64,000 bases of DNA from Gemmatimonadaceae bacterium (lineage in GTDB: Bacteria; Gemmatimonadota; Gemmatimonadetes; Gemmatimonadales; Gemmatimonadaceae). Position 1 is the stretch's first letter; each line of letters opens with the position of its first letter. Location of the stretch: contig JADLCY010000002.1 of assembly GCA_020846935.1 (NCBI GenBank), positions 372,001-436,000 of the forward strand, written 5' to 3'. Positions 1,623 to 39,355 of this stretch are shown here, in pieces. The position numbers were made by a program, and so were the translations under genes. Below the pieces are notes generated by a model. That model did not search any database and was not told where the DNA came from. It worked only from the letters and a program-made list of their open reading frames with translations.

Positions 1623-4139
1623 ATGAAGCGCGCGCTCGTCGCCGTCACCCTGTGCGTTGCCTTCACGAGCCCCGTGGCGGGTCAGGACTCGGAAGCCCGC
1701 GTCGTGATCGCGACCAGCGGCGGAATCTCGCTGGGATCGTACCAGGCCGGTGTGAACTGGGGACTCGTTGAGCTGCTGCGACGCACCCAGGTGGACGACT
1801 CGCTGCGCGCAATGGTGAGGGCATCGGGCACGGCACTCCCCTCCCTGGTGGGCCTCAGCGGCGCGTCGGCAGGAACGATCAACGCGCTGATGTCGGCGAT
1901 CCACTACTGCACCGCGGGTGGGGAAATCCGGCCCGAAGCCTCGCTCTACTGGAAGACGTGGGTCGACGTGGGCTGGCGCCAGCTCATCCCGAACGGGAGC
2001 CGAGTGCGACCGGGCGAACTGGGACTCATCGACCGTCAGTACTTCGAGACGGTACTCCTGGATCGGCTGCGCGCCGCGCTCGGCGAACGTGGGCGCCCGG
2101 GCTGTTCATTGCAGGTGGCTGGTTCGCTCACGCGACAGCGTGCGATCACCGAAGAGGTGTTCGACCACGTGAGCATCGCCGTACAGCGACACGTGGGCAC
2201 GTACGGACTCGCGGTGAACGACTCGGGCGGGATGGAGCTGCGGCAGGCATCCCTGCAGCTGCGAAACGATCGGGGCCTCGGCGTGCAGATCTCGCCGGCC
2301 GCTGGCGGCGCCACCGATCGGCTCGGCGTGGAGCAGGTCTTCGAGCTGGCGCGCGCATCGAGTTCGATCCCGTTCGTCTTTGCGCCGATCTCGTTGAGCT
2401 ACTATCGCTCCAACGATCTGGACAGCGCCGGCGTGTGCCCGGCCGGGCGCGAACGTCGCATTGGATGCGCAGTACCGCAGCAGGCCCGCTTCGTCGACGG
2501 TGGCGCGTTCGACAACCGGCCGATCTCGATCGCCGACCGCCTGCTGCTGGCGTCGCAGGTGGCCTCGCCGCCGACGACGCGCACGTTCTTCCACACGATC
2601 TTCATCGTGCCAAGCGCGTTGCGCACCGGCGAGGTGGCCGCGGCCGATACCACCACCGAACGCGCCGGTGGCACGCTGGCCGCCACGCAGTTCCTGGGCG
2701 GCATGTGGCGCTCGGCCGCTGAATACGAGCTGCACGCTTATGCACGCAACCGCTCGGTAGACTCCGAGCACCGCATCGCGGTGGCGGACACGGTGGACGT
2801 GACGAGTCGCGCGTACCCGATCTTCGGAGAGACGCTGGCCCACTTTGGCGCCTTTCTGGCGCGCCCCTTTCGCGAGCACGACTTCTACGTGGGCGTGTAC
2901 GACGCGCTCAACTTCAGTGCTGACCGCCTCTGTTCCGCCGCCACGTCGCCCACCGCACGATCACTCACCGAATACCGGGCGCAGTGCCATGCGAAGGCGT
3001 TCCATCAGCTCATGCATCGCGTCGACGTGGGCTGCACGGGCCACGTGATGGTCGAGCGCTTCTACGTCCGTGAGCACCACCTGCGCGTGGGCGACGCCAG
3101 CGAGGCCGACGCCGGCTGCGCGGGCAACGTCGACGATCGGCGGCGGATCGCCATGCTGCTCTCGATCACCGACGCCTTCGGCGAAACGCACCGCGCCCGA
3201 CGGCTCTGCCCGGAGAGCTTCAATCCGTTCGAGTCCCTGATGTGCACGAGCGGCATCGCCGCGTTCACGGACCTCGTCAGGCAGCGCGCCCTGGCCGACT
3301 CGGCGCGGGCATGGATCGGCGGCAAACCGGCCTGTCGCCAGGGCTACGTGCCGGTGGATTCGGCCTCGGCGGCCTGTTTCGTCGACGACTACTTCCTGCG
3401 ATTCATCGCCAACCCGCACGACTTCATCAAGCGCCTCGCGTTCCTCGCGCTGCAGCGGGCCGCCGCGGTCGAACGCGTCGCGCAGAAGTCCGAGGGCGTG
3501 AACTACGCCGATGCCCGACTCGGTCTCGCCAATCCCATCCTCCGCAGCCTCCTCGGAACGCCGACCACATCGGGGTTCGAGTGGGATCAGTCGACCGTGC
3601 CGCGCGAATGCACCGATGGCAACCTCTTTCCCCGCCTGGGATCGTGCGGACTGGCGCAATCGTTCTTTCGACTGGCGGTGCCCTACTACGTGGCCGGCGG
3701 TTTCGGCAACACGATGATCGAGACCGGCGTGCGACCCGCGCTGCACCAGGACGCCGAGACGAGCATCGTGTTCCCGCTGTCGCTGCACCATGGGCGCATC
3801 GCGACGACCGATCTCGCCCCCGGGCAATCGCTGCCGCGGCGGCCGTGGTACTCCGCGGGTGTTGGCGTGATGTGGCGCAATCACACGCTGGCCATCAACG
3901 AATGCCTCACGGCCATGTCGTGGCGCGGCAAGGTGCCGTGGTCCAAAGAGGTCATCATCCCGCGCAATGAACGCGCCCTCTATCGCCTGCAATGCGACCT
4001 GTTCGCGTCGCGCCTGACGCTTGGCGTCACCACCACCAGGCTCTCGGGCAACGACGCCAGCAAGTGGACGCTGCTCGTCGGCCTGGCCGACCTCAACGGG
4101 CTGCTGTACTGGCTGCTCCCACACGAGCTGCGCAAGTGA
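1623..4139 (+). CDS. Secreted patatin-like phospholipase
   Basis: An 838-residue protein with a signal peptide (MKRALVAVTLCVAF, cleavage near PVAGQ) and an N-terminal patatin domain, a lipid acyl hydrolase using a Ser-Asp dyad. Visible elements are the glycine-rich oxyanion loop SGGISLGSYQAG (32-43), the nucleophile elbow G-A-S-A-G (Ser82) and the D-G-G motif in RFVDGGAFDN (Asp292). The roughly 500-residue C-terminal part, rich in Cys and aromatic residues, is not recognised. With the probable outer-membrane protein 35 bp downstream it probably forms a two-gene unit, suggesting an envelope or secreted lipase. Substrate is unknown; the catalytic dyad is intact. Confidence 0.85.
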   Translation: MKRALVAVTLCVAFTSPVAGQDSEARVVIATSGGISLGSYQAGVNWGLVELLRRTQVDDSLRAMVRASGTALPSLVGLSGASAGTINALMSAIHYCTAGGEIRPEASLYWKTWVDVGWRQLIPNGSRVRPGELGLIDRQYFETVLLDRLRAALGERGRPGCSLQVAGSLTRQRAITEEVFDHVSIAVQRHVGTYGLAVNDSGGMELRQASLQLRNDRGLGVQISPAAGGATDRLGVEQVFELARASSSIPFVFAPISLSYYRSNDLDSAGVCPAGRERRIGCAVPQQARFVDGGAFDNRPISIADRLLLASQVASPPTTRTFFHTIFIVPSALRTGEVAAADTTTERAGGTLAATQFLGGMWRSAAEYELHAYARNRSVDSEHRIAVADTVDVTSRAYPIFGETLAHFGAFLARPFREHDFYVGVYDALNFSADRLCSAATSPTARSLTEYRAQCHAKAFHQLMHRVDVGCTGHVMVERFYVREHHLRVGDASEADAGCAGNVDDRRRIAMLLSITDAFGETHRARRLCPESFNPFESLMCTSGIAAFTDLVRQRALADSARAWIGGKPACRQGYVPVDSASAACFVDDYFLRFIANPHDFIKRLAFLALQRAAAVERVAQKSEGVNYADARLGLANPILRSLLGTPTTSGFEWDQSTVPRECTDGNLFPRLGSCGLAQSFFRLAVPYYVAGGFGNTMIETGVRPALHQDAETSIVFPLSLHHGRIATTDLAPGQSLPRRPWYSAGVGVMWRNHTLAINECLTAMSWRGKVPWSKEVIIPRNERALYRLQCDLFASRLTLGVTTTRLSGNDASKWTLLVGLADLNGLLYWLLPHELRK

Positions 4140-4174
4140 TCGCGCGCGTCCTGCAAACCACTCCATCCCTGACC

Positions 4175-5239
4175 ATGCGCAAGGCGCTCGTCGGCTTCCT
4201 CGCCCTCTCGCTGCTGCCCGCGTCCGCTCGCGCGCAGGACCTCGGCTTTCTCGGGTCCGTGTTCTCGCGCGTGCAGCGACTCACGCTGTTCCTGCAGTCG
4301 GCCGATCCTCGTCAGGCGGGCTTCCTCGATCGCAGCGGCGCGGGGTGTATCACGCTCCCCATGTGCGGTGCGGGGACCGAGGTGCTCATCGACCTCGATT
4401 CGCGCAGCCGGTTCATCGATCTCGAACTCGGGTTTGCAGCCGGCTACCTGCGGCCGGTGCGCAGCAAGCCGTCGGGCGACATGGACATCCGCGCCTCACT
4501 GCGATCGCTGCCCGTGATCTCCACCCACGCCACGTTCATGCGCGAGGGCTGGATCCGCCCCTACTTCACCGGCTCGTTCGGGCTCGTGGACCTGTGGAAC
4601 GCGCGCGTGCACACGGCGCAGGGCAAGCAGAGCGAGGTGAAGGCGTCGACGTTCGAGTATGGCGTGTCGGTGGGTGCGGGGATCGCGCCGCCGTTCACCA
4701 ACGCGCGGTTGCTGATCGAGTTCGGGCATCGTGCGCGCAACTTCTCGAGCGTGGGCTATACCCTCACCGATCCGCTGCCGACGTCGTTTCCGCGGGAGAT
4801 CAACCTCAGCACGTGGCAGACCACCATTGGCTGGCAGTTCGACCTGCGGCCGCTCAGCCGGGCGCCCGCGCACGCCGGCATGTGGATGCTCTCGCGTGTG
4901 GACGGCCTTGCGCTGCCCGCAACGTTGCGTCAGGACCGTGGCACGCCCGACGGCGTTCGCGAGGAGCTGGTGAGTGCCTACCTGGATCTGAGCGCGGAGC
5001 GGGATGCGTATTCGCTGCAGCTGGTCACACGGCTGACGACGGTCGGGCCCACGGGTGCAGTGGTGGAGCAGCGATTCGCCGAGCCGGTGCGCGAGACGGG
5101 AACGTGGGAGGCCACCAAGGGTGGTGTGCGACTCACACAGGGCGGCGTATCGCAGGTGGCCACACGAAGCGACGACGAGCTGATGCTGGCGCATGCGGGC
5201 ACGGGGCGGCGCCTGTTCTTCCGCAAGGTGCAGCGGTAG
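4175..5239 (+). CDS. Secreted hypothetical protein, probable outer-membrane beta-barrel
   Basis: A 354-residue protein with a signal peptide (MRKALVGFLALSLLPASARAQ). The mature part has alternating amphipathic strands ending in aromatic residues, such as FIDLELGFAAGYLRP, FTGSFGLVDLW and QTTIGWQFDLRP, the look of an outer-membrane barrel over roughly residues 60-230. A second, soluble-looking region follows (YLDLSAERDAYSLQLVTRLT onward) and the protein ends in a charged segment rather than a terminal aromatic. The ATG at 4175 is chosen because it begins the signal peptide; the frame is open further upstream inside the patatin gene. Closely spaced behind the patatin gene, so probably co-transcribed. 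No named family is recognised. Confidence 0.75.
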   Translation: MRKALVGFLALSLLPASARAQDLGFLGSVFSRVQRLTLFLQSADPRQAGFLDRSGAGCITLPMCGAGTEVLIDLDSRSRFIDLELGFAAGYLRPVRSKPSGDMDIRASLRSLPVISTHATFMREGWIRPYFTGSFGLVDLWNARVHTAQGKQSEVKASTFEYGVSVGAGIAPPFTNARLLIEFGHRARNFSSVGYTLTDPLPTSFPREINLSTWQTTIGWQFDLRPLSRAPAHAGMWMLSRVDGLALPATLRQDRGTPDGVREELVSAYLDLSAERDAYSLQLVTRLTTVGPTGAVVEQRFAEPVRETGTWEATKGGVRLTQGGVSQVATRSDDELMLAHAGTGRRLFFRKVQR

Positions 5240-8541: not shown

Positions 8542-9723
8542 CTAACGCTTTGGCCACGGGACGCCCTGCACCCGTGCGACCGAGCCCACGCCCTTGTACG
8601 TGAACTTCTGCAGGCGCTTCCCCTCGTACGTCTCGGTCGTGAAGATGTTGCCCTTCGAGTCCGTGGCGATGCTGTGCACGGCGAAGAACTGGCCGGGCTG
8701 CCGCCCGCCGTCGCCGAACTCGGTGAGGATCTGCAGCGTCTTGCGCTCGATCACGTACACCTTCTCGTTGCGGCCGTCGGCGAGGTAGAGGTATTTCTGC
8801 TCTCGGTCGCGCGAGAAGGCGATGTCCCACACCGAGCCGTCACCTCGCGTGCGCGGTGCGATGCGCACCTCGCGCACGAACTTGCCGTCGCGCTGGAACA
8901 CCTGGATGCGGTCGTTCGGGCGGTCACACACGTACACCAGACCGTCGCTGGACGGATCGGCGCAATGCACCGGATTGCGGAACTGGCGGATGAGGGGCGC
9001 ATCCGGGTTGTAGGGCCCCATGTTCGTGTCCTTGGGAGCTTCCCCGTACGCTCCCCAGAATCGCTTGAGGGCGCCGGTGCTCATGTCGATGACCGCCACG
9101 CGCTTGTTGGCGTACCCGTCGGCGACGTAGGCCTCGTTGTTCCTTGCGTCGAACGAGATCTTGGCCACGCGGCCGAAGCTCGTCGTGCTGCTGCTGTTGA
9201 TCGGTTGCCTGGCCTTGCCGTATTGCGCCAGGAACTTTCCGTCGTGCGTGAACTTGAGGATGTGCGAGTCGCCGGCCCCGTTGCCGCCGATCCAGACGTT
9301 GTCCTTGTCGTCCAGCGAGATGCCGTGGTTCGATGCCGGCCAGTCGTAGCCGTCGCCCGGGCCGCCCCACGCGCGCACCAGATTCCCCTCGGGATCGAAC
9401 TCCACGATCGGCGGCGCCGCGATGCAGCACTCGCCGATCGGATTCGCGCCGCCACCGCCGGCCTCGGTCCGCTGGTTGAGCGTCGAGTCGCCCCGATGGA
9501 TGATGAACACGTGGTCCTTCGAGTCGACCCCCACGCCGATCACCGAGCCCAGGATCCAGTGGTTTGGGAGCGGCCGGGGCCAATGCGGGTCGACCTCGAA
9601 GCGCGGAGCCTGCACCTGCTGCGTGCGCGAGGCAGATGCCTGAAGGCGGGCCTGGCCTACGCCGAGTGCCACAATGGCCCCGACCAGGATCATTCCGGTC
9701 AGAACCGTGCGACGGTGAGTCAT
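8542..9723 (-). CDS. Exported NHL-repeat beta-propeller protein
   Basis: A 393-residue protein beginning MTHRRTVLTGMILVGAIVAL, a signal or anchor sequence. It carries repeated NHL-type blades: VGVDSKDHVFIIHRG, ISLDDKDNVWIGGNG, ISFDARNNEAYVADGY and IATDSKGNIFTTETY. An unusual Cys pair (GECCIAAPP) sits in the first quarter. Such propellers resemble peptidyl-alpha-hydroxyglycine alpha-amidating lyases but in bacteria mostly have unknown binding or scaffold roles. The start at 9723 is chosen for the signal peptide; the frame is open farther upstream on the opposite side of the HupE-like gene. The TAG stop lies inside a GCCTAACG octamer (8540-8547). Confidence 0.8.
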   Translation of the reverse strand: MTHRRTVLTGMILVGAIVALGVGQARLQASASRTQQVQAPRFEVDPHWPRPLPNHWILGSVIGVGVDSKDHVFIIHRGDSTLNQRTEAGGGGANPIGECCIAAPPIVEFDPEGNLVRAWGGPGDGYDWPASNHGISLDDKDNVWIGGNGAGDSHILKFTHDGKFLAQYGKARQPINSSSTTSFGRVAKISFDARNNEAYVADGYANKRVAVIDMSTGALKRFWGAYGEAPKDTNMGPYNPDAPLIRQFRNPVHCADPSSDGLVYVCDRPNDRIQVFQRDGKFVREVRIAPRTRGDGSVWDIAFSRDREQKYLYLADGRNEKVYVIERKTLQILTEFGDGGRQPGQFFAVHSIATDSKGNIFTTETYEGKRLQKFTYKGVGSVARVQGVPWPKR

Positions 9724-24321: not shown

Positions 24322-25344
24322 CTATTTCTTCACGTACCGCTTGAGGGCCTTGGGACCCACCTCGGCGCCATAGATCACCCCGTTCCGGTCGACCGCCACG
24401 CCTTCCGCCGCGCTGGTGCTCGGCGGGTTCTCGGCCGGATCCGGGATAAAGAACTTCACTTCTCCGGTCCTTGCCGACCCGATCCGCATGCCACGCTTCC
24501 AGTCGGTTCGGGTACGCGAGACCGACCCGGACTCCGAGTCCGCTGCATACAGGTTGTCGCTCGCGTCGATCCAGATGCCGCTGGGGCGCGAGAACTGATA
24601 CCACTCGTCGAGGACCGTGCCCTTCGTGTCGTAGATGACAATGCGGTTGTTGCTCCGGTCGCCAACAAACAACCGACCCTGCGAGTCCATGGCCATGGTG
24701 TGCGGCTGGTCCAGCTGCCCGCGGCCAGACCCCTTCGTGCCCCACGCGGCGAGGAACTTTCCCGTGCGGTCGAACCGAATGATGCGCGCGTTGGCATCGG
24801 CCGCGGACGAGTGACCCTCGGCTACATAGATGTCGCCGTTGGGCGCCACGAGCACGTCGTTCGGCTGCCAGAAATAGTCGGCGCCCTTGCCGCCGCCGGG
24901 TTTGCCCAGGGTCATCAGGAGCTTGCCGTCGGGGCTGAACTTGAAGACCTGATGGCCCTTGGGCGGCAGTGAGTCCGGCCGACGACCGATGCAGGCACAA
25001 TCCACGACCCACACGTTGCCCTCGCGGTCCACCTCGATGCCGTGCGGAAAAATGAACATGCCCTTGCCGAACGCCTTCACGAGCTTGCCGTCGGCGTCAA
25101 AGTGCAGAATGGGGTCGAGGTCGGAATCGGCGCACGAGTTCTGGCCGCAGCGTTCGAACACCCAGACGCTGCGGCCATCGGGCGCGATCGAGACCGCACT
25201 CGTGGAGCCCCAGGTGCGACCCTCGGGCATCTTCGCCCAGCTCTCGACCGTCACGTAGGGATTGGGCAGATCGTTCACCGGCTTCACCTGCGCAGCGAGC
25301 GGCGCGGCGGCGAGGGCGCTGAGGACGAGGCTGTGTCGAAGCAT
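24322..25344 (-). CDS. Secreted NHL-repeat beta-propeller protein
   Basis: A 340-residue exported propeller. Signal peptide MLRHSLVLSALAAAPLAAQ, then six-bladed NHL repeats such as VSIAPDGRSVWVFERCG, IEVDREGNVWVVDCACIG, VLVAPNGDIYVAEGHSS and MAMDSQGRLFVGDRSNNRIV. Four cysteines occur in the first third (ERCGQNSC and VVDCAC), probably as disulfides. The fold and the acidic blade edges recall peptidylglycine alpha-amidating lyases, but lyase activity is not established for bacterial members. The start at 25344 matches the signal peptide. It lies ahead of the oxidoreductase pair but is separated from it by a strong terminator, so it is its own unit. Confidence 0.82.
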   Translation of the reverse strand: MLRHSLVLSALAAAPLAAQVKPVNDLPNPYVTVESWAKMPEGRTWGSTSAVSIAPDGRSVWVFERCGQNSCADSDLDPILHFDADGKLVKAFGKGMFIFPHGIEVDREGNVWVVDCACIGRRPDSLPPKGHQVFKFSPDGKLLMTLGKPGGGKGADYFWQPNDVLVAPNGDIYVAEGHSSAADANARIIRFDRTGKFLAAWGTKGSGRGQLDQPHTMAMDSQGRLFVGDRSNNRIVIYDTKGTVLDEWYQFSRPSGIWIDASDNLYAADSESGSVSRTRTDWKRGMRIGSARTGEVKFFIPDPAENPPSTSAAEGVAVDRNGVIYGAEVGPKALKRYVKK

Positions 25345-25556
25345 TCGGGCGGCCGGGACCGGGACGAGGACGGGGGGAAGTTCGAGCACGGGAGGGAGTT
25401 GGGCAACGGGTGCGGGCCGCAGCGGCCCGAGCGAGGAGCGGCCGCGCTCGCCCTCCCTCGGGTGCCGGAACCGGGAACCGCCGCGGCCGTGCCGAGAACC
25501 ACGGCGTCGCGTGCGGCCGGCGCGGTGCCGTCAGCGAAGCCAATTTGACCTCGGCG

Positions 25557-37300: not shown

Positions 37301-37308
37301 AAGGAGGT
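37301..37308 (+). promoter_or_regulatory. Full-consensus Shine-Dalgarno sequence for a 30-codon gene
   Basis: AAGGAGGT at 37301-37308 is a perfect anti-16S match placed four bases before ATG 37313. It is the best ribosome-binding site noticed in the window and is the main argument that the very short gene after it is real. Confidence 0.75.
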
Positions 37309-37312
37309 ACGT

Positions 37313-37405
37313 ATGTCGAAGCATCTCGTTCTGCTCCCGATCCTCTTTCAATGGGCGTGCCTTGGCCAGGATTGCATCGGCCTCGACTGCTGCTGGATCG
37401 CGTAG
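37313..37405 (+). CDS. Cys-rich 30-residue peptide (candidate secreted or modified peptide)
   Basis: A 30-codon gene behind a perfect Shine-Dalgarno sequence. The product has a basic then hydrophobic N-terminus (MSKHLVLLPILF) resembling a short signal or leader. Its C-terminus reads CLGQDCIGLDCCWIA, made of two pentads C-[LI]-G-x-D followed by CCWIA, with four cysteines spaced C-x4-C-x4-C-C. A weak lipobox-like Q-W-A-C precedes the first Cys. It is 44 bp ahead of the 6-bladed propeller gene and should be co-transcribed with it. No family is recognised. It may be an exported disulfide-bonded or modified peptide handled by its neighbours; that is inference from context. It could also be a regulatory leader peptide. 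Confidence 0.55.
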   Translation: MSKHLVLLPILFQWACLGQDCIGLDCCWIA

Positions 37406-37449
37406 TGACGGACAGTCTCAGGTCGCTCTGCCAGAGGTGACGGGATCTG

Positions 37450-38472
37450 ATGAAGAACGGCCGTTCGTACATGTGCCTGGCGCTTTGCAGCACCCTTCTC
37501 TCAGCACGAGCTACGGGAGCCCAAGCGTCCCGGCTGGCTCAACACTTCACCTTTGGGCCCAGAGTGGACCTGGAGGAGCCTAAAGGCGTCCTGAACGTGG
37601 CGGTGGCCGCATCAAACGACGCACGCGGCGGGGTGCTCGTCGTCGATGCACGCGAGTCCCAGGTGAGGAGGTACGACCTCAACGGAAGGCTGCTCATGTA
37701 CTTTGGAAGGGCCGGCGGGGGACCAGGTGAGTTTCCCGGTCCTCCGTTGGCCGCGATTCGACTTCCCGACAACCGGATCGCCGTCGGAGATGCTGAAGGA
37801 GGTATTTCCGTGTTCAGCGCATCCGGTACCATCGTGCGGCGCGTCAGAGTCTCGCCTTCGCCGATTTACTCAATGGTGGCCATTGGGCAGACCATCTTTG
37901 TCTCCACGCAGAGGATGGTTCATGGCCGACTGCTGTTGCTCCACCGCTGGGGCCCTGAAAGCGACAGTCTGGCTGGGAGCTTCTTCGAGCCCCCTGTAGT
38001 GCGGAACGCCTCGCGTCGCATCGTCGCCACCACTGGGGGCGCGTTCGTTGCCGCCAGAGCAGATACCCTGGTCGTCACGTTTTCGCTCGCCGACTCGTTG
38101 TACCTCTTCCCGGGCACCGCGCAGGTTCCGATCAAGCGGCCACTCTCGCTCCGCTCATTCTCATATCACGTGGGCGAGGCACCAAACAGCGGACCGCTTT
38201 CTCCGGAGTTCCGGTCGTGGTTGCAAACGGGGGCACGGGTCGAGCGGGCGTTTTCGTCGTCCGACGGTGCCCTCTACGTGCAATACCTCCGGTTTGGCTC
38301 ATATGGACCGGACTGGCACTTGGCCCGCCTCTCACCGAGTGGAACGGTGACCATGGACACCGAGACCGGTGCTCAGCTCTTGTTCGTTTCGCCGATGGGC
38401 CTTGTTTTCACCGACCCTGTGACCGGGTCTCCGAGTGTGTGGCAGGTGGCATCGCCCCGAGTTCGACCGTGA
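37450..38472 (+). CDS. Secreted 6-bladed beta-propeller protein
   Basis: A 340-residue protein with a signal peptide (RSYMCLALCSTLLSARATGAQ). It has the signature of the 6-bladed beta-propeller group: GVLVVDARESQVRRYDLNGR, LMYFGRAGGGPGEFPGPP and LPDNRIAVGDAEGGISVFSA. Enzymatic function is not known for the family; in Bacteroidetes such propellers are often encoded beside short Cys-containing exported peptides, which fits the preceding gene. The stop overlaps the next start (GTGA). The region has visibly lower GC than its surroundings (37861-37920 is 52% GC), suggesting acquisition. Confidence 0.72.
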   Translation: MKNGRSYMCLALCSTLLSARATGAQASRLAQHFTFGPRVDLEEPKGVLNVAVAASNDARGGVLVVDARESQVRRYDLNGRLLMYFGRAGGGPGEFPGPPLAAIRLPDNRIAVGDAEGGISVFSASGTIVRRVRVSPSPIYSMVAIGQTIFVSTQRMVHGRLLLLHRWGPESDSLAGSFFEPPVVRNASRRIVATTGGAFVAARADTLVVTFSLADSLYLFPGTAQVPIKRPLSLRSFSYHVGEAPNSGPLSPEFRSWLQTGARVERAFSSSDGALYVQYLRFGSYGPDWHLARLSPSGTVTMDTETGAQLLFVSPMGLVFTDPVTGSPSVWQVASPRVRP

Positions 38473-38942
38473 GCCCTCCGACGAAGCTGCTCGTGTGCTG
38501 GCTGGCGGTCCTTTCGATGGCCTGCAGGTCGAATGCGCCATTCGAGGACCTTGACGCGCACCTGGTCGGCGCGGGAAGAACCGTCGTCTGGATCACGAGC
38601 GAACACGACTGCTTTGGATGCAGTACGCCTCTTGCTCTCCTTCGACAAGCGAGTCACGACCTGCCGCAGCTGCGAATACTCATTCTCGCTGTCGATGGCG
38701 ACACCAGCATGTTCCGGGAGATGGTTACGAGAGAGCGGATTCGTGCCCGCGTTGGCCGAGTGGACCTGTCGTCTTCCTTCAGCAAGTTGCGAGCGCAGGC
38801 TCCGCTGCTCCTCGTGCTTGATGGTCGAGAGCTGCTGGCGATGGCGCGCACGGACGTACCACTGTCGCCCAACCTCACGAGCGCCATGATGGCGCTTGCG
38901 AGCCAGAACCTCGACTCAGCATCATCGGGAACACCGCACTGA
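38469..38942 (+). CDS. Thioredoxin-like CxxC lipoprotein
   Basis: A 157-residue lipoprotein starting at a GTG that overlaps the propeller stop. Lipobox at LLVCWLAVLSMACRS. The mature domain has a thioredoxin-like beginning: RTVVWITSEHDCFGCSTPL, with the redox motif C-F-G-C at the end of the first strand, then the helix LALLRQASHDLPQL and strand RILILAVDGD. The C-terminal half keeps LRAQAPLLLVLDGRELL, equivalent to the cis-Pro strand (P in QAPLL). A membrane-tethered periplasmic thiol oxidoreductase would suit a Cys-rich peptide two genes upstream. The next gene overlaps it by one base (TGATG). Confidence 0.65.
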   Translation: MSPPTKLLVCWLAVLSMACRSNAPFEDLDAHLVGAGRTVVWITSEHDCFGCSTPLALLRQASHDLPQLRILILAVDGDTSMFREMVTRERIRARVGRVDLSSSFSKLRAQAPLLLVLDGRELLAMARTDVPLSPNLTSAMMALASQNLDSASSGTPH

Positions 38943-39355
38943 TGTCACCGACTCTTCGGCGAACCCTGTCCTGGCTGCTCTGCGTGGCGACAGCCGTGGC
39001 GCACTCGTCGGCCGCACAAACAGGCCCAGCCCCGGGCTACCTCGGGGCGATCATTGCAGCGTGCGCACGACCGGATTGCACCGCTGAGCAACGGATGGGG
39101 CGCGTTATGCGCATCGACCCGCACTCCCCCGCCGCCGCCGCCGGCCTCCAGGTTGGGGACACGGTAGAGGCAATCAACGGCCAGGAGCTCTCCGGGGTTC
39201 CACTCCCGGAGCTGCTGCGGTACAAAGCCGGGCAAGTTGTATCACTTCGGGTCCGCCGAGCGGGCAAGTCCCTCGTCGTCAGGGCGACTACGGTGCAGCG
39301 GACTCCGGAACTCGAAGCTCGTCTCGGGGCGCGCCCGCCATCACGGCGTCCCTGA
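38942..39355 (+). CDS. Secreted PDZ-domain protein
   Basis: A 137-residue protein with a signal peptide (LSWLLCVATAVAHSSAAQ) and a single PDZ domain: GYLGAIIAACARPDCTAEQ, then VMRIDPHSPAAAAGLQVGDT and VEAINGQELSGVPLPELLRY, ending RVRRAGKSLVVRATTV. PDZ domains bind C-terminal peptides; no protease domain is attached, so this is a free-standing binding or adaptor protein. It is the last gene of the overlapping four-gene set and might recognise the short peptide C-terminus (WIA), which is speculation. A Cys pair (AACARPDC) may form a disulfide. Confidence 0.75.
   Translation: MSPTLRRTLSWLLCVATAVAHSSAAQTGPAPGYLGAIIAACARPDCTAEQRMGRVMRIDPHSPAAAAGLQVGDTVEAINGQELSGVPLPELLRYKAGQVVSLRVRRAGKSLVVRATTVQRTPELEARLGARPPSRRP

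What the first reader, a model, noticed from the sequence alone, without database searches (positions are those of the whole stretch)
37301..39355. Operon pairing a Cys-rich 30-residue peptide with a 6-bladed propeller, a CxxC lipoprotein and a PDZ protein
A perfect AAGGAGGT Shine-Dalgarno precedes a 30-codon gene whose product ends CLGQDCIGLDCCWIA, with a tandem C-[LI]-G-x-D pentad and four Cys. It is followed by a 6-bladed beta-propeller, a membrane-tethered CFGC thiol protein and a PDZ protein, joined by GTGA and TGATG overlaps. Seen: genes, motifs, overlaps. Known: in Bacteroidetes, NVEALA-type short Cys peptides are commonly encoded beside 6-bladed propellers. Inference: this could be an analogous Gemmatimonadota-type peptide export, oxidation and recognition system, with the lipoprotein oxidising the peptide and the PDZ protein binding its C-terminus.
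Basis: partly seen in the sequence, partly recalled or inferred. Interest (0 to 1): 0.78.

Follow-up and report, generated by a model that had tools for sequence, protein, structure and literature searches.

The report
Exported cysteine-rich peptide with propeller operon
A tiny four-cysteine peptide gene in a Gemmatimonadaceae genome heads an operon that looks like an unusual, minimal member of a previously undescribed gene set found across that family, in which secreted cysteine-rich peptides sit beside disulfide-forming enzymes and often a beta-propeller protein.

Summary
In detail: a perfect Shine-Dalgarno, a 30-codon ORF with 4 Cys, an NHL-type propeller, a CFGC protein and a PDZ protein, joined by GTGA and TGATG overlaps. 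This exact peptide and its lipoprotein are orphans (peptide pattern in 1 of 298 Gemmatimonadota genomes; lipoprotein in none of 36 relatives). The kind of operon is not an accident. In the same genome, 8 of 30 propellers have a signal-peptide, Cys-rich microprotein beside them; 378 kb of control DNA has no intergenic one. Two paralogous propellers carry the same trio (Cys peptide, propeller, CxxC lipoprotein). Across the family the usual neighbour is a DsbA subfamily lying between peptide and propeller: 22-25 of 30 such dsbA genes have the peptide beside them, against 4 of 87 dsbA genes from a broad scan. Mature peptides carry an even Cys number (27 of 28), share 6- and 8-Cys frameworks, and one tandem pair shows purifying selection on the mature part only. 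No Pfam or NCBIfam model matches them; none are NVEALA. Best reading: an exported disulfide-bonded peptide with its own thiol oxidase and periplasmic propeller, the window being a short divergent variant. Biological role untested. PDZ recognition of the peptide has no support.

The parts
37301..37308 (+). Shine-Dalgarno AAGGAGGT, GGAGG 5 nt from the ATG
   Evidence: sequence
37313..37405 (+). 30-aa Cys-rich peptide gene; K3, hydrophobic residues 5-15, then CLGQDCIGLDCCWIA (4 Cys, spacing C-x4-C-x4-CC)
   Evidence: passes the SP-Cys filter with 0 intergenic control hits in 378 kb; DNA pattern unique among 298 Gemmatimonadota genomes
37450..38472 (+). exported NHL-type propeller (340 aa), one of about 28 paralogues in the genome (GRxGxGPGEF signature)
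38469..38942 (+). putative lipoprotein with CFGC motif (157 aa, GTG start, GTGA overlap)
   Evidence: CxxC-lipoprotein counterparts beside paralogous propellers: L019 (CMSC) and L024 (CFSC)
38942..39355 (+). exported PDZ-domain protein (137 aa, TGATG overlap), no protease domain
   Evidence: not seen at other peptide loci

Best explanation
The operon makes a short exported peptide whose cysteines form disulfides outside the cytoplasm, together with a CxxC thiol protein that acts on it and a periplasmic six-bladed propeller that binds, displays or carries it. It is a divergent, minimal form of a Gemmatimonadaceae module whose usual order is Cys-rich peptide, then a dedicated DsbA-like oxidase, then a propeller or another surface/export partner. 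Shown by sequence comparison: the recurrent gene order, the signal-peptide-like leaders, the even Cys numbers and common frameworks in the family, the DsbA identity in the usual form, and purifying selection on one tandem pair. Inferred: that the window peptide is translated and exported, that the CFGC lipoprotein replaces DsbA, and that the propeller is the peptide's partner. The fast divergence with kept Cys framework makes a secreted, competition- or recognition-type peptide (bacteriocin-, defensin- or signal-like) the likeliest role; this last step is a guess.
For: SP-Cys microproteins are concentrated at propellers: 11 ORFs beside 8 of 30 propellers in this genome, against 0 intergenic in 378 kb of control. 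Thiol-oxidoreductase and Cys-peptide neighbours co-occur among 119 propellers: 10 both, 4 thiol only, 7 peptide only, 98 neither; Fisher p = 1.4e-7 (the window itself was scored thiol-negative for a technical reason, so the true table is slightly stronger). The same trio occurs twice more in this genome: L024 (57-aa 6-Cys peptide, propeller, CFSC lipoprotein) and L019 (propeller, CMSC lipoprotein with 4-nt overlap, two Cys peptides). Usual form: dsbA overlapping or adjoining the propeller start with the peptide upstream, in genomes G000, G002, G009, G027, G028, G195, G232; DsbA identity by Pfam PF13462/PF01323 and PDB hits. In 30 loci of the DsbA subfamily, 22-25 have the peptide beside dsbA, mostly directly upstream; dsbA genes taken from a scan of all prokaryotes 4 of 87. 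Mature Cys counts even in 27 of 28. Tandem peptide pair in G018: mature dN/dS about 0.31, leader about 1.1.
Against: The window peptide has no homologue, is far shorter than its analogues (30 vs 57-104 aa), has a short hydrophobic segment without a clear cleavage site, and does not fit the 6- or 8-Cys frameworks. The lipoprotein's thioredoxin fold is not supported statistically. The propeller is not obligatory in the module: other peptide-dsbA pairs are followed by CarboxypepD_reg-like or MacB/FtsX-like genes. Several peptides outside the dsbA-linked set (L019b, L120, L128) have odd Cys counts (sequences).
Confidence: 0.55

Rival explanations
1. The short ORF is a cis-acting leader: its run of Cys codons makes ribosomes stall when cysteine or charged tRNA-Cys is scarce and so controls the downstream thiol operon; the peptide itself does nothing.
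For: Position 44 nt upstream of the propeller, very small size, four Cys codons near the stop, thiol protein downstream. Cys-codon leader ORFs are known in mycobacteria (own knowledge).
Against: The propeller has its own SD. Analogous peptides in the family are 57-104 aa with clear signal peptides and even Cys counts, lie downstream as well as upstream of propellers (L019, L023, L037), and one tandem pair has a mature part under purifying selection, all of which point to product function.
Confidence: 0.15
2. The peptide is a small structural or cofactor-bearing subunit of a periplasmic enzyme with the propeller as large subunit, as in methylamine dehydrogenase (Cys-rich light chain, propeller heavy chain, MauD thioredoxin).
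For: Same kinds of parts: propeller, small Cys-rich exported protein, thioredoxin-like maturation protein; many peptides contain Trp.
Against: The propeller profile resembles NHL six-bladed propellers in the PDB search, with no amine dehydrogenase heavy chain among the hits. The peptide-dsbA pair often occurs without a propeller, and peptides diverge far more than a cofactor subunit would. MauE/MauG were not searched for.
Confidence: 0.12
3. The 30-codon ORF is a chance ORF or a decayed remnant, and only the propeller, lipoprotein and PDZ genes are functional.
For: No homologue in 297 other genomes; poor signal peptide; shortest of its kind; lower GC3 of the operon (0.71 vs 0.88 in the upstream gene) suggests recent arrival or fast change.
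Against: Consensus SD at ideal spacing; same filter gives 0 intergenic hits in 378 kb of control DNA and 0.2% in Markov versions of the gap; it sits where other propeller operons carry a Cys peptide.
Confidence: 0.18

Closest known systems
NVEALA peptides (PF14055) beside six-bladed propellers in Bacteroidetes
   Different: No sequence match; 6-10 Cys frameworks and a dedicated DsbA in Gemmatimonadaceae; different phylum
Disulfide-bonded bacteriocins with dedicated thiol oxidoreductases (sublancin/BdbB, pediocin PA-1/PedC; own knowledge)
   Same: Small Cys peptide and its own thiol-disulfide protein in one operon
   Different: Sec-type leaders rather than double-glycine leaders, propeller or CarboxypepD_reg partner, no bacteriocin model matched above a cut-off
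Methylamine dehydrogenase cluster (MauA, MauB, MauD; own knowledge)
   Same: Cys-rich small exported protein, propeller and thioredoxin-like protein
   Different: NHL-type propeller, very variable peptides, propeller often missing
DsbA / Thioredoxin_4 family oxidases (PF13462, PF01323; PDB 4pwp, 3eu3 BdbD)
   Same: The usual partner in the module is a clear DsbA (CPxC, membrane-anchored)
   Different: In the window its place may be taken by an unrelated CFGC lipoprotein

Membership tests
NVEALA (PF14055) | match to the NVEALA profile | tested here: not met
   no peptide among 17 matches; no hit over cut-off in the genome
NVEALA (PF14055) | gene beside a six-bladed propeller | tested here: met
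   peptide 44 nt upstream of an NHL-type propeller
Gemmatimonadaceae Cys-peptide / thiol-oxidase / propeller module (described here) | short ORF with SD, N-terminal hydrophobic leader and 4 or more later Cys beside the propeller | tested here: met
   leader is weak
Gemmatimonadaceae Cys-peptide / thiol-oxidase / propeller module (described here) | DsbA-subfamily gene in the operon | tested here: not met
   no DsbA match in the window operon; a CFGC lipoprotein is there instead
Gemmatimonadaceae Cys-peptide / thiol-oxidase / propeller module (described here) | 6- or 8-Cys framework in the mature peptide | tested here: not met
   window has C-x4-C-x4-CC only; frameworks
CxxC-lipoprotein variant (L019, L024, window) | propeller followed within 40 nt by a lipoprotein-like CxxC protein, with Cys peptides in the same gene set | tested here: met
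thioredoxin fold (CFGC lipoprotein) | significant profile or fold match | tested here: inconclusive
   hhalign probability under 1% but CxxC aligned with CPxC; Pfam AhpC-TSA E 0.27; model pLDDT 41
six-bladed NHL propeller | profile match to solved NHL propellers | tested here: met
   A1 against PDB, E to 8e-41; own model low confidence
PDZ domain | Pfam PDZ over cut-off | tested here: met
   PDZ_6 42.8 bits, cut-off 27

The most novel reading that the evidence does not exclude
Gemmatimonadaceae carry a large, fast-evolving, so far unannotated repertoire of exported disulfide-rich peptides, each with a dedicated DsbA or CxxC lipoprotein and a propeller or other surface partner, used in competition or recognition between cells; the window encodes a minimal 15-residue mature form.
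Probability: 0.45. Interest if true: 0.78.

Novelty: new variant of a known kind. Interest (0 to 1): 0.62.

Why it matters
If right, a widespread soil phylum with few cultured members has an overlooked class of secreted disulfide-bonded peptides with their own folding enzyme, detectable by a simple rule (small SP-Cys ORF just upstream of a particular DsbA subfamily). That gives a list of candidate antimicrobial or signalling peptides and a testable role for the many six-bladed propellers in these genomes, whose function is unknown.

Tried and rejected
Direct homology of the window propeller, lipoprotein and peptide in relatives: none at the thresholds used. Pfam and NCBIfam on the peptides: nothing. 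Profile comparison of the lipoprotein with DsbA and thioredoxin: not significant. Propellers sampled from other families of the phylum: peptides at only 1 of 54, so the association is mainly within the family (that sample is the best-scoring propellers, not a random one). Paper searches found nothing on NVEALA or on Cys peptide-DsbA operons. PDZ as peptide receptor: not recurrent.

Full report
Observation. AAGGAGGT lies at 37301-37308, the ATG at 37313, the TAG at 37403. The product is MSKHLVLLPILFQWACLGQDCIGLDCCWIA. The propeller (37450-38472), the CFGC protein (GTG at 38469) and the PDZ protein (38942-39355) follow, with GTGA and TGATG overlaps. The propeller's paralogue profile hits solved six-bladed NHL propellers. 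The PDZ assignment is over the Pfam cut-off. The CFGC protein has only a weak Pfam hint (AhpC-TSA, E 0.27).

The exact genes are orphans. The propeller has no match at E below 1e-12 in 59 relatives, four of them in the same genus, and the pattern-based scan of GTDB contigs found none. The lipoprotein has none in 36 relatives. The degenerate DNA pattern for CLGxDCxGxDCC occurs in this genome only, out of 298 in the phylum. The operon has lower GC and GC3 than its surroundings (63.5% vs 67.4% for the window; GC3 0.71 vs 0.88 in the upstream gene).

The kind of operon recurs within the genome. The genome has about 28 paralogous propellers with a GRxGxGPGEF signature. A filter for small ORFs (SD, hydrophobic N-terminus, at least four later Cys, intergenic) finds 11 on the propeller strand within 1.5 kb of propellers, touching 8 of 30 propeller frames, one on the opposite strand, and none in 378 kb of control regions on both strands (a few loci are counted twice because neighbouring propellers share a peptide). 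Two paralogues carry the same trio as the window: L024 (57-aa peptide with 6 Cys, propeller, CFSC lipoprotein) and L019 (propeller, CMSC lipoprotein overlapping by 4 nt, then two Cys peptides). L019 is also the closest paralogue of the window propeller.

The usual thiol partner is a DsbA. At L037 and L029 in this genome, and in G002, G009, G027 and G028, the gene just upstream of the propeller, usually overlapping or adjoining it, is a membrane-anchored DsbA with CPxC (PDB matches), and the Cys peptide lies just upstream of it. Across 119 propellers in the sampled genomes, having a thiol-oxidoreductase neighbour and having a Cys-peptide neighbour go together (10, 4, 7, 98; Fisher p = 1.4e-7). 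The window was counted as thiol-negative there because its lipoprotein frame opens far upstream, so the real association is a little stronger. Related sequences count as independent in this test and the thiol profiles were built partly from loci already seen to carry peptides, so the p-value is indicative.

The DsbA subfamily leads to the peptide family. A search with the DsbA alignment over 109 genomes of the family returned 30 best loci, most of them from genera not used to build the profile. In 22 (SD required) to 25 (SD not required) of them an exported Cys-rich peptide of about 60-104 aa sits near the dsbA gene, mostly 0-260 nt upstream. DsbA genes drawn by a scan of all GTDB species are the control: 4 of 87 have such a neighbour, and of these L249 and L313 are from MAGs titled Gemmatimonadaceae. 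Contig G195:C21 has the same length as JAICWO010000006.1 (288,580 bases), titled Gemmatimonadaceae bacterium, which names the family of the window by inference.

Properties of the peptides. Of 28 peptides examined, 27 have an even number of Cys after the leader. Two frameworks recur: eight Cys, about C-x2/3-C-x3..6-C-x7..9-C-x3/4-C-x4..8-C-x4..7-C-x5..12-C, and six Cys, C-x7/8-C-x11/12-C-x3-C-x7-C-x6/7-C (alignment A6 has C35, C45, C54, C59 and C66 invariant). A tandem pair in G018 has mature dN/dS about 0.31 and leader about 1.1, which is evidence that these small genes are translated and that the mature part is what matters, though it rests on one pair of 27 codons. No Pfam or NCBIfam model covers any of 17 tested.

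The propeller is one of several partners. Peptide-dsbA pairs are followed by a propeller in many loci, and in others by a CarboxypepD_reg-like protein or a MacB/FtsX-like permease (both identified by eye). Propellers sampled from other families of the phylum rarely have the peptides (1 of 54). So peptide plus thiol oxidase is the core, and the propeller is a frequent but replaceable partner.

Mechanism. Shown by sequence: gene order, leaders, Cys parity and frameworks, DsbA identity in the usual form. Follows from established knowledge: DsbA-type proteins introduce disulfides into exported proteins, and NHL propellers are binding platforms. Inferred: export by Sec, oxidation by the linked DsbA or, in the window, by the CFGC lipoprotein, and capture or display by the propeller. 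The role outside the cell is open. Fast divergence with a kept Cys framework, multiple copies and uneven presence between close relatives suggest competition or recognition, but no assay exists.

The window itself. Its peptide is the weakest member: 30 residues, a hydrophobic stretch of about 11 residues, no clear signal-peptidase or lipobox site (QWA before C16), C-x4-C-x4-CC spacing. It shares a CC pair near its end with the two L019 peptides. It may be a real minimal form, a regulatory leader or a remnant. The thioredoxin fold of the lipoprotein could not be shown. The PDZ protein has no counterpart at other peptide loci.

Verdict.

Noticed in passing
L330 (G018:C16) 2838-3277: Two tandem 60-aa peptides (ACCxTxFTSAxCCGxxCxSGWFNCSA) upstream of a DsbA and a MacB/FtsX-like permease; mature parts conserved, leaders not.
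   Followed up: partly
L224, L226-L229, L233-L235, L241, L243, L248 and L345-L348: Peptide-dsbA pairs in many loci without a propeller; in several the gene downstream of dsbA looks like a CarboxypepD_reg-domain protein (by eye, not tested against Pfam).
   Followed up: partly
G068, G081, G173 (same class, other family): Genomes with 340-420 first-look candidates for the propeller profile, an extreme expansion; the few loci examined lacked Cys peptides.
   Followed up: partly
L030 2747-3561: The dsbA upstream of a propeller is split over two frames and lacks CxxC (FSDFQPRT); its peptide has 11 Cys, the only odd count in the set of 28.
   Followed up: no
L297 (Archangiaceae MAG JAACJQ010000350.1): A myxobacterial dsbA gene with a 108-aa signal-peptide protein with 8 Cys 426 nt upstream; possible case outside Gemmatimonadota.
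   Followed up: no
L216 (G071, another family of the class): 72-aa signal-peptide ORF with 4 Cys, 460 nt from a propeller without a dsbA neighbour; the only such case among 54 propellers outside the main sample.
   Followed up: no
L025 (G000:C1:744500-752500), about 3717-4694: Integron-integrase-like gene about 300 nt from a propeller gene on the same strand; L019 has a transposase-like gene upstream of its propeller.
   Followed up: no
window 24322-25389 and 8542-9723 (minus strand): Two further, more distant propeller proteins in the window, without Cys peptides nearby.
   Followed up: partly
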